Positions 20,176 to 26,005 of a stretch of 64,000 bases of DNA are shown one piece after another (positions within the stretch are counted from its first letter, which is position 1; each line of letters opens with the position of its first letter). This stretch comes from Paraconexibacter algicola. GTDB taxonomy: Bacteria > Actinomycetota > Thermoleophilia > Solirubrobacterales > Solirubrobacteraceae. The position numbers were made by a program, and so were the translations under genes. The stretch is taken from NCBI RefSeq assembly GCF_003044185.1, contig NZ_PYYB01000004.1, positions 248,001-312,000 of the forward strand, given 5' to 3'. The notes beneath the pieces were generated by a model that saw only the letters and a list, made by a program, of their open reading frames with translations, ran no database searches and was not told the origin of the DNA.

Positions 20176-20508
20176 ATGGCTCCCGTCTACGCCCTGAACC
20201 TCTTCGACCTCGCTCCCAACGACGACTACAAGGCGTACTCGCGGCGCTCCGTCGACGCGGTCGGCAAGCACGGCGGGCGGGTCGTCGCGCTGGGCCGGCT
20301 CTCCGAGGACACCGCCAGCAGTGGCGACGTGCCGCCCCGTCAGGCGATGGTGCTCGTGGAGTGGCCGAGCGCCGCGGCGTTCGAGGCGTTCAAGGCCGAC
20401 CCCGACCACGAGGACCTGCACCCGCTGCGCGAGGGTGGGACCGAGCACTACCTCTGGTGGGCCTACGACAAGCTCGAGGACCTGCGCCCGCTGCTCAACG
20501 ACCGCTGA
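20176..20508 (+). CDS. DUF1330-like dimeric alpha-beta barrel protein
   Basis: 110 residues. APVYALNLFDLAPNDDYKAY, GRVVALGRLSE, the VEWPSAAAFEAFKADPDHED segment and a final EHYLWWAYDKL follow the DUF1330/ferredoxin-like dimeric alpha-beta barrel plan. These small proteins are of unknown function; some are stress- or monooxygenase-related. Cytoplasmic. Leaderless start. A hairpin follows 63 bases after the stop, so it is probably not part of the mycosporine operon. Confidence 0.65.
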   Translation: MAPVYALNLFDLAPNDDYKAYSRRSVDAVGKHGGRVVALGRLSEDTASSGDVPPRQAMVLVEWPSAAAFEAFKADPDHEDLHPLREGGTEHYLWWAYDKLEDLRPLLNDR

Positions 20509-20861: not shown

Positions 20862-21527
20862 ATGCCGGCCCTGCTGTTCGGCTCCATCAGCACCGTCGCG
20901 GACACGTCCGAGATCCAGCGCGAGGCGTTCAACGCGGCCTTCCGCGAGCACGGCCTCGACTGGCACTGGGACCGCGACGCCTACCGCGAGCTGCTCGCCT
21001 CCAGCGGCGGTGAGCAGCGCATCGCCGACCAGGCCCGGGCCAGCGGCGAGACCGTCGACGCCGCCGCCGTCCACGCCACGAAGACCGCCCGCTTCCAGCA
21101 GCTGCTCGCCGAGGCGCAGCTGCGACCGCGGGCCGGCGTCACCGAGACCATCCGCGACGCCAAGGCCAGCGGCTTCGGCGTGGCGTTCGTGACCACCACG
21201 TCGGCCGCCAACGTCGCCGCCGTCCTCGCCGCCGTGCAGGACGACCTGCCCGCCTCCTGGTTCGACGTCGTCCTGGACCTCTCGCACGTCGAGCACCCCA
21301 AGCCCGACGGCGACGCCTACCGGCACGCGCTGCGCGCCCTCGGCGAGCCCGTCGAGCAGTGCCTCGCGATCGAGGACAACGTCGGCGGCGTCGCCGCCGC
21401 GGCCGACGCCGGCGTGCGCTGCGCCGCGTTCCCCAACGCCAACACGGCCGGACACGACTTCACCGCCGCGACCGCCGTCGTGGACCACCTCGCCTTCGAC
21501 GACCTGCGGGCCCTCCTCCCCGCCTGA
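20862..21527 (+). CDS. HAD-fold protein with degenerate active site, leading the mys cluster
   Basis: 221 residues with a HAD subfamily IA layout. The motif I region reads [20 protein letters not shown] where active enzymes have FDxDGTLxDT: the nucleophile (position 7) is Gly and the acid/base Asp (position 9) is Ile. The cap helices ([20 protein letters not shown]), motif II (AFVTTTS), the motif III Lys (HPKPDGDAY) and motif IV ([17 protein letters not shown]) remain. It should not act as a normal phosphatase; a binding, regulatory or altered role is possible. A strong RBS precedes it; the stop is 40 bases before mysA, so they are probably co-transcribed. Confidence 0.8.
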
Positions 21528-21567
21528 CCCCACCCTCCCTCTCCCCCTCGAGAAAGAGCCCCCCACC

Positions 21568-22797
21568 ATGAGCAGCAGCACGCCGCAGGCGACCTTCACC
21601 GCGACCGACCGCGCCTTCCACGTCGAGGGCTACGAGCGGATCGACTTCAGCCTCCTCTACGTCGACGGGGTCTTCTCCGCCGAGAACCCCGAGCTGGCCG
21701 ACACCTACCGGTCCTTCGGCCGCTGCCTGATGGTCATCGACGAGAAGGTCCTCGGGCTCTACCGCGACCAGATCGACGCGTACTTCGCCCACCACGACAT
21801 CGCGCTGACGCTCGTCCCGGTCGGCATCCGCGAGACCGAGAAGTCGCTGCGGACGCTCGAGCGGATCGTCGACGCCTTCGGCGAGTTCGGGCTGCTGCGC
21901 AAGGAGCCGGTGCTCGTCGTCGGCGGCGGCCTCACGACCGACGTGGCCGGCCTGGCCTGCGCCACGTACCGGCGCGGCACGAACTACATCCGCATCCCCA
22001 CGACGCTCATCGGCCTCGTCGACGCGAGCGTGGCGATCAAGGTCGCGGTCAACCACGGGCACTACAAGAACCGGCTCGGCGCCTACCACGCCTCGCAGCA
22101 GGTGCTGCTCGACTTCTCGTTCCTCGCGACGCTGCCGGAGGACCAGATCCGCAACGGCATGGCGGAGCTCGTCAAGATCGCCGTCGTCTCGCACGAGCCA
22201 TTGTTCCGGATGCTCGAAGAGCACGGCGAGGCGCTGCTCGAGTCGCACTTCGGGTTCGTCGGCGGGACGCCGGAGCTGCGCGAGATCGGCCACCGCGTCA
22301 CCTACGACGCGATCCACGCGATGCTCGAGCTCGAGGTCCCGAACCTCCACGAGCTCGACCTCGACCGCGTCATCGCCTACGGGCACACCTGGAGCCCGAC
22401 GCTCGAGCTCGCGCCGCAGGAGCCGATGTTCCACGGCCACGCGGTGACGATCGACATGGCCTACTCGGCCACCGTCGCGCAGCAGCTCGGGCACATCACG
22501 GTCGAGGACCGCGACCGCGTGCTGGCGCTCATGAGCGGCCTCGGCCTCGCGATCGACAGCCCGTACCTGACGCCAGATCTCATCGCCCGCGGCACCGAGT
22601 CGATCACCCAGACCCGCGACGGTCTCCTGCGCGCCGCGCTCCCGAGCCCGATCGGCACGACGTTCTTCCTCAACGACGTCACCCACGAGGAGCTCACCCG
22701 CATGCTGCACGTGCACCGCGAGCTCTGCGCGGCGCTCCCGCGCGAGGGCGACGGCGTCGAGATGTGGACCTCGGCGCCCGCCGGCGAGCCACGGTAG
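21568..22797 (+). CDS. mysA: 2-Demethyl 4-deoxygadusol synthase (sugar phosphate cyclase)
   Basis: 409 residues, dehydroquinate-synthase fold. It binds NAD at [15 protein letters not shown] (GGG 119-121) and zinc through Glu200 in MAELVK, His273 in [11 protein letters not shown] and His289 or 291 in [15 protein letters not shown] and [20 protein letters not shown] distinguish C7-cyclitol synthases (DDGS or EEVS, substrate sedoheptulose 7-phosphate) from ordinary AroB. The next genes (methyltransferase, two ATP-grasp ligases) fit DDGS, the first step of mycosporine synthesis, rather than EEVS. Cytosolic; RBS GAAAGAG before ATG 21568. Confidence 0.85.
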
Positions 22798-22807
22798 GGC
22801 CCCGACG

Positions 22808-23632
22808 ATGACCGGCCGGACCGACGCCGCGACCGCACCGCGCCCCGTCACGCCGGGCGGGATCCTCGCCGCCCGGCTCGCGGAGGTCTGCGAGCGGGTC
22901 GCGGCATCGGGCGGGCAGGACGACGCGCTGCTCGCCGAGCTGCGGGAGCTCCGCGACCTGGCCGCCGGCCTGGACCCGTACGTGGAGGCGGTGACCACCC
23001 CGGAGTCCCCCGCCCTCGCCGCGCTCGCCCGGCGCACCCGTGAGCACGACTGGGACGCCCTCGACGGCCCGCTGGAGCAGGAGATGCTCTCCGGGCACGT
23101 CGAGGGGCAGTTCCTCAAGACGCTCGTGCACGCGACCCGCGCCCGCTCGATCCTCGAGGTCGGGCTCTTCACCGGGTACTCGGCGCTCGCGATGGCCGAG
23201 GCGCTGCCGGAGGACGGGCGGCTCGTGGCGCTCGAGCTCGACTCGGGCGTCGCGGCGCTGGCCCAGGAGTGCTTCGCGGCCTCCCCCGCCGGCGCGCGGA
23301 TCGAGGTCCGGGTCGGACCGGCCGCGGACGGCCTGGCGGACCTCGTCCGGGCCGGCGAGCGGTTCGACCTCGTGTTCGTCGACGCCGACAAGGGCGGCTA
23401 CCGCGCCTACCTCGACGCGCTGCTCGACGGTGACCTGCTCGCCGAGAACGCACTGGTCTGCGTCGACAACACGCTCATGCAGGGCGAGCCGTGGACCCGC
23501 GATGGCGCGGACGCCTCGCCCAACGGCGCGGCGATCGCCGCGTTCAACGCCGCGGTCGCCGCCGATCCGCGCGTCGAGCAGGTGCTCGTGCCGCTGCGCG
23601 ACGGCGTCACGCTGATCCGCCGGGTGGCGTGA
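22808..23632 (+). CDS. mysB: SAM-dependent O-methyltransferase forming 4-deoxygadusol
   Basis: 274 residues, class I methyltransferase of the caffeoyl-CoA/catechol type. SAM motif I is LEVGLFTGYSALAMAEAL; metal-binding residues lie in FVDADKGGY and VCVDNTLMQGEPW. In mycosporine pathways this enzyme methylates the DDGS product to 4-deoxygadusol. Starts 10 bases after mysA and overlaps mysC by GTGA, so the four enzyme genes form one tight unit. Confidence 0.85.
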   Translation: MTGRTDAATAPRPVTPGGILAARLAEVCERVAASGGQDDALLAELRELRDLAAGLDPYVEAVTTPESPALAALARRTREHDWDALDGPLEQEMLSGHVEGQFLKTLVHATRARSILEVGLFTGYSALAMAEALPEDGRLVALELDSGVAALAQECFAASPAGARIEVRVGPAADGLADLVRAGERFDLVFVDADKGGYRAYLDALLDGDLLAENALVCVDNTLMQGEPWTRDGADASPNGAAIAAFNAAVAADPRVEQVLVPLRDGVTLIRRVA

Positions 23633-24972
23633 GCGGCACGCTGCGCACCGACGCGCGCACCGCGGCGACCCTCGGGCTGCTGACCCTCGCCCTGCCGCTG
23701 AACGCCGCGCTGACCGGCGCGGCGCTCGCCCGCGGCGCGATCCGCCGGGCCCGCGGCGTCCCCGCACCACCACGGGCGACACCGGCCGCCCGGCCGCGCA
23801 CGGTGCTGCTCAGCGGCGGGAAGATGACGAAGGCGCTGCAGCTGGCCCGTTCCTTCCACGCCGCCGGGCACCGCGTCGTGCTGGTCGAGGCCCCGAAGTA
23901 CCGCTGGAGCGGCCACCGCTTCTCCGCCGCGGTCGACGTCTTCCGCACCGTCCCGCCCCCGGAGGACCCCGGCTACGTCGACGCGCTCGTGCGGATCGTG
24001 CGCGAGGAGGGCGTCGACGTGTACGTGCCCGTCTGCAGCCCGGTGTCGAGCCTGCACGACGCGCGCGCCCGGGCCGCCCTGGACGGGCTCTGCGAGGTCG
24101 TCCACGGCGACGAGGAGACGATCGCCGGCCTCGACGACAAGGCGTCGTTCACCGAGCTCGCCGCGTCGCTCGGCCTGCCGGTCCCCGAGGCGCACCGCAT
24201 CACCGATCCCGCGCAGGTCCTCGACGTGCCGGCCCCGCAGGACGGCGGCCACTACGTCCTGAAGAGCATCCCCTACGACCCGGTCCACCGGCTCGACCTG
24301 ACGCCGCTGCCGCGCCCCAGCCGGCAGGAGACGCGCGCGTTCGTCGCCGACCTCCCGATCTCCCCGGAGCAGCCCTGGGTGCTGCAGCGGTTCGTCGACG
24401 GCCAGGAGTACTGCACCCACACGACCGTGCGGGACGGTCGCGTGCGCGTGCACCTGTGCTGCGAGTCCTCCGCCTTCCAGCTCAACTACGAGATGGTCGA
24501 CGTGCCCGAGATCGACGCGTGGGTCCGCGAGCTCGTCGGGCGGCTGCGGCTCACCGGGCAGTACTCGTTCGACTTCCTGCGCTCGCGCACCGACGGTCGC
24601 GTGTACGCGATCGAGTGCAACCCGCGCACGCACTCGGCGATCACGATGCTGCACGACCACCCCGACGTGGCGCGCGCCTACCTGGAGGACGACGACCTGC
24701 CGCCGGTCCGGCCGCTGCCCGGCAGCCGCCCGACCTACTGGCTGTACTGGGAGCTGTGGCGGCTGCTGTCCCGGCCGCGGACAGCGCCCGAGCGCCTGCG
24801 CACCCTGTGGCGCGGCACCGACGCGATCTTCGACTGGGACGACCCGCTGCCGTTCCTGCTCGTGCACCACCTGCAGATCCCGTCGCTGCTGCTGGGAAAC
24901 CTCCGCGCGCACCGGCCGTGGGTGCGGATCGACTTCAACATCGGCAAGCTCGTCGAGCCCGCCGGGGACTGA
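23629..24972 (+). CDS. mysC: ATP-grasp ligase making mycosporine-glycine
   Basis: 447 residues from GTG 23629 (GTGA overlap with mysB). An N-terminal hydrophobic segment (LGLLTLALPLNAALTGAALA) suggests membrane association. The ATP-grasp core includes VLLSGGKMTKALQLARSFHA, YVLKSIPYDP, QRFVDGQEY, and the metal-binding YAIECNPRTHSAITMLHDHP. The C-terminus LVHHLQIPSLLLGN ... RIDFNIGKLVE is, as I recall, very close to cyanobacterial MysC. The family joins glycine to 4-deoxygadusol with ATP. Length matches the family. Confidence 0.9.
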   Translation: MSGTLRTDARTAATLGLLTLALPLNAALTGAALARGAIRRARGVPAPPRATPAARPRTVLLSGGKMTKALQLARSFHAAGHRVVLVEAPKYRWSGHRFSAAVDVFRTVPPPEDPGYVDALVRIVREEGVDVYVPVCSPVSSLHDARARAALDGLCEVVHGDEETIAGLDDKASFTELAASLGLPVPEAHRITDPAQVLDVPAPQDGGHYVLKSIPYDPVHRLDLTPLPRPSRQETRAFVADLPISPEQPWVLQRFVDGQEYCTHTTVRDGRVRVHLCCESSAFQLNYEMVDVPEIDAWVRELVGRLRLTGQYSFDFLRSRTDGRVYAIECNPRTHSAITMLHDHPDVARAYLEDDDLPPVRPLPGSRPTYWLYWELWRLLSRPRTAPERLRTLWRGTDAIFDWDDPLPFLLVHHLQIPSLLLGNLRAHRPWVRIDFNIGKLVEPAGD

Positions 24973-24976
24973 CCCG

Positions 24977-26005
24977 GTGCCCGTGCGCGTCCTGCATCTC
25001 GTCGGCTCGGCGCAGAGCCCGTTCCTGGAGGAGCTCTCGCACCTCTACGCGCGCGACGCCCTCGAGGTCCTCGACGTCCCCGGCTACGAGCACCACGTCG
25101 CCGCGGTCGCCCCGGACGGGTCGTGGCGGTTCCCCGGCGCGACGCTCGACCCCGACGCGCTCGCCGCCGCCCCGGCGCTTCCCGTCGCCCGCGCGCTCGC
25201 GCGGATCGCGGAGCTGGCGCCCGACGTCGCCGTCCCGCAGATGTTCTGCCGCAGCGGCATGACCGACCACCGCGCGCTGCTGCGCGTGCTCGGCGTGCCG
25301 GTGCTCGGCAACCCGCCGGAGGCGATGGCGCTGACCGCCGACAAGGCCCGCGCGAAGGCGGTCGTCGCCGCCGCCGGCGTGCGCGTCCCCGCCGGGGTCG
25401 CGCTGCGCGCCGGCGATCCGCTGGACGGGCTGCCGGAGCTGCCGGTGGTGGTGAAGCCCGCGGCGGCCGACAACTCGCACGGCGTCGCGCTCGTCCGTCA
25501 CCGCGACGAGCTGGCCGGGGCGGTGGCCGCCGCCTTCGCGCACGACGACGAGGTGCTCGTCGAGGCGTACGTCCCGCTCGGCCGCGAGGTCCGCTGCGGC
25601 ACGCTCGTGCGCGACGGCGAGCTCGTGGTCCTGCCGGTCGAGGAGTACGCGCTGGACGAGATCCGCACGGCGGACGACAAGCTCGGACGGCGGGACGACG
25701 GCGACCTGGCGCTCATGGCGAAGACCGAGGACCGGGCGTGGATCGTCGCCGCCGACGACCCGGTCCTCCCGGCGGTGCACGAGGCGGCCCGCCGCTGCCA
25801 CCGGGCGCTCGGCTGCCGCCACTACGGGCTCTTCGACCTGCGGATCGACCCGGCGGGCGAGCCGTGGTTCCTGGAGGCCGGGCTGTACTGCTCGTTCGCG
25901 CGCAGCAGCGTGCTCGCCGTCATGGCCCGGGCGGCCGGGATCGACGGACCGCAGCTGTTCGCCACCGTGCTCGCGCAGGCCCGGCGGGACGGCTCGGCCG
26001 CCTAG
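24977..26005 (+). CDS. mysD: D-Ala-D-Ala ligase-like ATP-grasp enzyme, second amino acid addition
   Basis: 342 residues from GTG 24977, four bases after mysC. It opens with VRVLHLVGSAQSPFLEELSH, followed by ATP-grasp elements: LPVVVKPAAADNSHGVALV, VLVEAYVPLGREVRCGTLV, FDLRIDP and WFLEAGLYCSFARSS. MysD enzymes condense serine, threonine or another amino acid with mycosporine-glycine to give shinorine- or porphyra-334-like products. The amino acid used cannot be told from sequence. Last gene of the cluster; 7 bases separate it from the convergent gene. Confidence 0.85.
   Translation: MPVRVLHLVGSAQSPFLEELSHLYARDALEVLDVPGYEHHVAAVAPDGSWRFPGATLDPDALAAAPALPVARALARIAELAPDVAVPQMFCRSGMTDHRALLRVLGVPVLGNPPEAMALTADKARAKAVVAAAGVRVPAGVALRAGDPLDGLPELPVVVKPAAADNSHGVALVRHRDELAGAVAAAFAHDDEVLVEAYVPLGREVRCGTLVRDGELVVLPVEEYALDEIRTADDKLGRRDDGDLALMAKTEDRAWIVAADDPVLPAVHEAARRCHRALGCRHYGLFDLRIDPAGEPWFLEAGLYCSFARSSVLAVMARAAGIDGPQLFATVLAQARRDGSAA

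What the first reader, a model, noticed from the sequence alone, without database searches (positions are those of the whole stretch)
20862..26005. Mycosporine-like amino acid (UV sunscreen) cluster in a probable Solirubrobacterales genome
Seen: a C7-cyclitol synthase ([17 protein letters not shown]), an O-methyltransferase, a MysC-like ATP-grasp protein with CNPRTHSAITM and a RIDFNIGKLVE tail, and a MysD-like ATP-grasp protein, with gaps or overlaps of 10 bases or less between the four. Known: mysA-mysB-mysC plus mysD or an NRPS make shinorine- or porphyra-type sunscreens in cyanobacteria and a few actinobacteria. Inferred: this lineage makes such compounds. The extra lead gene and lack of NRPS set it apart.
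Basis: partly seen in the sequence, partly recalled or inferred. Interest (0 to 1): 0.85.

Follow-up and report, generated by a model that had tools for sequence, protein, structure and literature searches.

The report
Sunscreen operon led by dead phosphatase
This is a genuine five-gene bacterial operon for a UV-absorbing mycosporine sunscreen (most likely shinorine), of a kind already known from other actinobacteria; the unexpected part is that its lead gene, found in every actinobacterial cluster examined, encodes a sugar-phosphatase relative whose catalytic aspartates have been replaced in the same way everywhere.

Summary
In detail: 20862-26005 holds five co-directional genes, HAD-mysA-mysB-mysC-mysD, spaced by +40, +10, -4 and +4 bases. 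MysD carries the L-A omega-loop pattern reported for shinorine-preferring enzymes, so shinorine is the predicted product. Its lead gene and lack of NRPS do not set the cluster apart: all 22 actinobacterial clusters seen here have the same HAD gene, HAD co-occurrence was published in 2025, and mysABCD is reported in Paraconexibacter (Solirubrobacterales). Two points are less ordinary. (1) The HAD is a CbbY (xylulose-bisphosphate phosphatase) fold whose catalytic DxD is G-S-I in 22 of 22 clusters; one loss explains this and the gene is under purifying selection, so it looks like a conserved pseudo-phosphatase. (2) The TauD oxygenase found with 19 of 21 comparable clusters is absent from this whole genome, yet the HAD stays, so the HAD goes with the core pathway. 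That the HAD binds a sugar phosphate or helps MysA is inference only.

The parts
20862..21527 (+). HAD-fold protein, CbbY relative, with the catalytic DxD replaced by G7-S8-I9 (predicted pseudo-phosphatase); first gene of the operon
   Evidence: Pfam PF00702/PF13419; best PDB match CbbY 4uat, E 5e-42; model pLDDT 95.6, CbbY-XuBP complex 4uau Z 29.3; G-S-I in 23/23 members against D-x-D in 20/20 CbbY-like relatives
21568..22797 (+). mysA: desmethyl-4-deoxygadusol synthase (DDGS), sedoheptulose 7-phosphate cyclase
   Evidence: 590 bits to 5TPR (Anabaena) against 263 bits to ValA EEVS 4P53; DDGS clade 100/99
22808..23632 (+). mysB: O-methyltransferase (4-deoxygadusol formation)
   Evidence: PF01596, E 8e-47; 55% identity to the O-methyltransferase beside mysA in Nostoc sp. 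HK-01
23629..24972 (+). mysC: ATP-grasp-like ligase (predicted 4-deoxygadusol + glycine to mycosporine-glycine)
   Evidence: NF005315 420 bits, over cut-off 406; 57% identity to the Nostoc HK-01 gene that follows mysB; CNPRTHSA and DFNIGKLV invariant in 13 aligned proteins
24977..26005 (+). mysD: D-Ala-D-Ala-ligase-like ATP-grasp ligase (predicted mycosporine-glycine + serine to shinorine)
   Evidence: PF07478 69.9 bits over cut-off 24; 50% identity to Nostoc HK-01 MysD; omega-loop residues L and A at the Np.MysD 249/257 positions (rule from PMC11983340)

Best explanation
An actinobacterial-type MAA operon. MysA (DDGS) turns sedoheptulose 7-phosphate into desmethyl-4-deoxygadusol, MysB methylates it to 4-deoxygadusol, MysC adds glycine (mycosporine-glycine), and MysD adds an amino acid, most likely serine, giving shinorine, a UV-A absorber. 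With no TauD in the genome and no PhyH (MysH-type) gene linked to the cluster, conversion to palythines is not predicted. The lead HAD is a CbbY-fold protein that has lost the nucleophile and acid/base aspartates but kept other phosphate- and metal-site residues. It most likely acts without hydrolysis, binding a sugar phosphate or a partner such as MysA to steer or regulate entry of sedoheptulose 7-phosphate. Shown by sequence: gene identities, DDGS clade, gene order, loss of DxD, co-occurrence, purifying selection, TauD absence. Inferred: each chemical step (from characterised homologues), the shinorine product, and the role of the HAD (weakest, about 0.3). The stated confidence is for the MAA operon plus the HAD being no ordinary phosphatase.
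For: MysA is in the DDGS clade and far from EEVS. MysB, MysC and MysD have the expected families, and the same A-B-C-D genes occur in Nostoc HK-01 without the HAD. The HAD and mys genes are found together in 22 genomes. The MysD L-A pattern predicts shinorine. The G-S-I HAD occurs in exactly the genomes that have the cyclase: 7 of 399 in the class sample and 7 of 396 in the phylum sample. G-S-I replaces D-x-D in 23/23, with one origin at 100/99, while K147, E171, D172, R53 and K74 are kept. dN/dS of the HAD is 0.15-0.32 in the closer pairs. PF02668 is absent from G000, and the HAD is kept in both clusters without linked TauD (window, L025).
Against: No chemistry was done, so product and activity are unproven. 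The MysD rule was derived from cyanobacterial enzymes and mapped through Nostoc HK-01 numbering. A G-S-I HAD also occurs on a Roseobacter litoralis plasmid outside any MAA cluster, so the family's function may not be specific to MAAs. Cyanobacterial clusters such as that of Nostoc HK-01 do without the HAD, so it is not required for the chemistry. Two clusters keep the HAD with a very different cyclase (L027, L028), which weakens a role specific to DDGS.
Confidence: 0.8

Rival explanations
1. The HAD is still an enzyme: with the G-S-I loop it uses another residue (for example Ser8) or another chemistry to remove phosphate from, or otherwise process, a pathway sugar.
For: K147, T111, E171 and D172 are invariant; the fold is intact; the gene is under purifying selection.
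Against: Both catalytic aspartates are gone in 23/23, together with E16 to S and H19 to Q, each invariant in the 20 D-x-D relatives. MAA chemistry as established in cyanobacteria needs no such step, and the Nostoc cluster has no HAD.
Confidence: 0.15
2. The HAD works with the TauD oxygenase in making palythines and is a relic in this cluster.
For: HAD and TauD are reported as highly co-localised (PMC11888242); 19 of 21 clusters where it could be seen have TauD.
Against: The window and L025 (G594) keep an intact, full-length HAD with G-S-I although G000 has no TauD gene at all and those of G594 are far away. A relic would be expected to decay.
Confidence: 0.12
3. [quoted passage not shown]
For: DDGS and EEVS share fold and substrate; ValA is the second-best PDB match.
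Against: 590 against 263 bits; the DDGS side of the tree at 100/99; DDGS-type residues throughout (GHTWSPTLE against GHSFSPSVE); MysB, C and D are alongside.
Confidence: 0.03
4. The end product is porphyra-334, another amino acid conjugate or a mixture, and not mainly shinorine.
For: Characterised MysDs are promiscuous (PMC11983340).
Against: L-A pattern at the two specificity positions, shared by the 11 other actinobacterial MysDs aligned here, whereas Nostoc HK-01 has F-S.
Confidence: 0.25

Closest known systems
Actinobacterial MAA clusters with HAD and TauD (GATOR-GC, PMC11888242; Rhodococcus fascians D188 operon cited there)
   Same: Same HAD, mysA, mysB, mysC, mysD genes
   Different: This copy has no TauD beside it or anywhere in the genome; the loss of the HAD's catalytic residues does not come up in the passages read there
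Paraconexibacter sp. AEG42_29 mysABCD (PMC11737030)
   Same: mysABCD in the order Solirubrobacterales
   Different: Reported as not found outside Paraconexibacter among the genera compared; the window's genome is in a different genus (g1) from its nearest relatives with the cluster (g8), though names are withheld
Cyanobacterial mysABCD (Nostoc sp. HK-01, L051; Anabaena DDGS 5TPR)
   Same: DDGS, O-methyltransferase, MysC and MysD at 50-66% identity
   Different: No HAD in HK-01; MysD omega-loop pattern F-S in HK-01 against L-A here
CbbY xylulose-1,5-bisphosphate phosphatase (4UAR-4UAU)
   Same: Fold (Z 29.3, 38-40% identity) and residues R53, K74, K147, E171, D172
   Different: Both catalytic aspartates lost, E16 to S and H19 to Q; sits with mysA and not with Rubisco genes

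Membership tests
MAA biosynthetic cluster (mysABCD) | MysA in the DDGS clade of sedoheptulose 7-phosphate cyclases | tested here: met
MAA biosynthetic cluster (mysABCD) | MysB O-methyltransferase next to mysA | tested here: met
   PF01596; 55% to Nostoc HK-01
MAA biosynthetic cluster (mysABCD) | MysC ATP-grasp-like ligase | tested here: met
   NF005315 over cut-off; 57% to Nostoc HK-01
MAA biosynthetic cluster (mysABCD) | MysD (Ddl-like) or MysE NRPS as last condensing enzyme | tested here: met
   PF07478; 50% to Nostoc HK-01 MysD
MAA biosynthetic cluster (mysABCD) | Production of 4-deoxygadusol, mycosporine-glycine or a disubstituted MAA | not testable with these tools
   needs expression and LC-MS
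Actinobacterial HAD/TauD-type MAA cluster | HAD-family gene in the operon | tested here: met
Actinobacterial HAD/TauD-type MAA cluster | TauD/TfdA oxygenase linked to the cluster | tested here: not met
   PF02668 has no match in G000; no homologue in the window
CbbY phosphatase (HAD superfamily) | CbbY fold | tested here: met
CbbY phosphatase (HAD superfamily) | DxD nucleophile and acid/base motif | tested here: not met
   G-S-I
[quoted passage not shown]

The most novel reading that the evidence does not exclude
The HAD is a dedicated pseudo-phosphatase of actinobacterial sunscreen synthesis: a CbbY-derived protein that lost catalysis once, kept a sugar-phosphate pocket, and now binds sedoheptulose 7-phosphate (or MysA) to commit pentose-phosphate carbon to MAA synthesis.
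Probability: 0.3. Interest if true: 0.65.

Novelty: new member of a known kind. Interest (0 to 1): 0.42.

Why it matters
The operon extends a known sunscreen pathway to a further actinobacterial genus. The analysis also gives a testable answer about a gene left open in the literature: the MAA-linked HAD, described by its Pfam domain in the passages read, lacks both catalytic aspartates, needs only one loss to explain this, and stays when TauD is absent. That moves the question from 'which phosphate does it remove' to 'what does a dead sugar-phosphatase do for MysABCD', and this natural TauD-less cluster is a clean place to ask it.

Tried and rejected
EEVS assignment of the cyclase: rejected by score and tree. 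The HAD as an ordinary phosphatase: disfavoured by the lost DxD. The HAD as a TauD partner only: disfavoured by two clusters without linked TauD. Recent acquisition of the cluster: GC is 74.0% against 74.3% for the window, so there is no compositional sign; five genomes of the same genus lack the cyclase, but two flanking genes searched in those genomes did not show a shared empty site, so gain or loss is undecided. A scan of genome contigs with mysA returned one named relative only, Aeromicrobium endophyticum. No paper found treats the MAA-linked HAD as a pseudoenzyme, within an open-access library only.

Full report
Observation. The stretch 20862-26005 holds five co-directional genes: a HAD-family gene, a sedoheptulose 7-phosphate cyclase, an O-methyltransferase, a MysC-like protein and a Ddl-like ATP-grasp ligase. 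The spacings are +40, +10, -4 and +4 bases.

The cyclase. Against solved structures the best match is 5TPR (590 bits, E 1.7e-176); ValA (4P53, EEVS) scores 263 bits and dehydroquinate synthases 123 or less. A maximum-likelihood tree with references, the genome's own AroB and relatives puts the window's protein among the DDGS sequences with 5TPR and Nostoc HK-01, separated from ValA and other EEVS-like proteins (100/99). That 5TPR is the DDGS of Anabaena variabilis is my own knowledge; the PDB record calls it 3-dehydroquinate synthase.

The other core enzymes. MysB is an O-methyltransferase (PF01596) and MysC passes the curated cut-off of NF005315. MysA, B, C and D are 65, 55, 57 and 50% identical to the neighbouring genes of Nostoc sp. 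HK-01. For MysD, two omega-loop residues are reported to set the product: L-A gives mainly shinorine and F-S mainly porphyra-334 (PMC11983340). At those positions Nostoc HK-01 has F249 and S257, and the window and the 11 other actinobacterial MysDs aligned have L and A. Shinorine is therefore predicted. The chemical steps are transferred from characterised homologues and were not tested.

Distribution. In the class sample 7 of 399 genomes have the cyclase at E 1e-60 or better; in the phylum sample 7 of 396, of which five are true DDGS and two are divergent. Five sampled genomes of the window's own genus lack it. Every cluster recovered has HAD, mysB, mysC and mysD where the contigs are long enough (in G098 the HAD sits at the end of another contig; L074 is a 5.8-kb contig in which no mysD was found). 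The HAD is upstream of mysA in the DDGS clusters and between cyclase and mysB in the two divergent ones. The association is not new: a 2025 preprint describes HAD and TauD genes as conserved in MAA clusters of Actinomycetota, Pseudomonadota and Bacillota and absent from those of Cyanobacteriota, and cites unpublished heterologous expression of a Rhodococcus fascians operon that gave shinorine and palythines (PMC11888242). A mysABCD cluster in Paraconexibacter, order Solirubrobacterales, is also published (PMC11737030).

The HAD. Its nearest solved relative is CbbY, the xylulose-1,5-bisphosphate phosphatase (E 5e-42; profile search E 7.5e-56). An AlphaFold2 model (pLDDT 95.6) matches the CbbY-XuBP complex 4uau at Z 29.3, rmsd 2.1 over 218 residues. 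In CbbY the catalytic motif is D-x-D; in the window it is G7-S8-I9. G-S-I is present in 22 of 22 MAA clusters and in one Roseobacter plasmid protein; D-x-D is present in all 20 CbbY-like comparison proteins, which were not seen in MAA clusters. E16 and H19, invariant in the 20, are S (23 of 23) and Q (22 of 23) in the G-S-I group, whereas K147, E171, D172, R53, K74, G49 and G50 are invariant in both. The G-S-I proteins form one side of a single branch at 100/99, so one loss suffices. In the closer pairs dN/dS is 0.15-0.32, like that of mysB and mysD; it is 0.53-0.62 in the two more distant pairs, where mysA too reaches 0.50 for the window pair and synonymous sites are harder to correct. The gene is maintained. 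In both the class and phylum samples the G-S-I HAD occurs in exactly the genomes that have the cyclase (16, 55; the samples share some genomes). The simplest reading is a conserved pseudo-phosphatase. That it binds sedoheptulose 7-phosphate or MysA is inference from the retained residues, the gene order and the pathway's substrate; nothing here tests it.

TauD. A TauD-family gene is found with 19 of the 21 clusters where it could be seen, either after mysD or between mysB and mysC (in L074 on the other strand or out of order). G000 has no PF02668 match in a genome 95.6% complete, and in G594 (L025) the TauD genes are far from the cluster. Both keep the HAD. So the HAD can be uncoupled from TauD and goes with the core pathway. 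G000 has two PhyH-family genes on other contigs; whether either acts like MysH is unknown.

Verdict. A real MAA operon, a new member of a known kind. The points worth following are the lost catalytic residues of the HAD and the TauD-less state of this copy.

Noticed in passing
L027:9289-10539 (- strand, G498) and L028:8987-10279 (- strand, G624): Two MAA clusters (HAD, mysB, mysC, mysD, tauD all present) carry a divergent cyclase only 38-39% identical to the window's MysA, on a long branch sister to DDGS, with the IKVAVNH region changed to SPRTCCDG. Best PDB match of the first is still 5TPR (260 bits). It may make a different ring; assay needed.
   Followed up: partly
L049:8989-9660 (Roseobacter litoralis plasmid pROLI81): A HAD of the same G-S-I type (FGSIGTIVETSEMQRQAFN) lies outside any MAA cluster, beside TrkA/TrkH and an L,D-transpeptidase gene, so the pseudo-phosphatase family is wider than sunscreen clusters.
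   Followed up: partly
L026 (G594:C1:1513829-1514971): The other genome whose MAA cluster has no linked TauD (G594) also has a second cyclase, about 40% identical to the window's MysA, that groups loosely with EEVS-like proteins.
   Followed up: no
20176-20508: A DUF1330 protein gene on the same strand lies 353 bases upstream of the HAD; no counterpart was found in the other clusters, so it is probably not part of the operon.
   Followed up: partly
G000:C1:91136-91762 and G000:C5:133544-134134 (outside the window): Two PhyH-family genes elsewhere in the genome; a MysH-like role was not tested.
   Followed up: no
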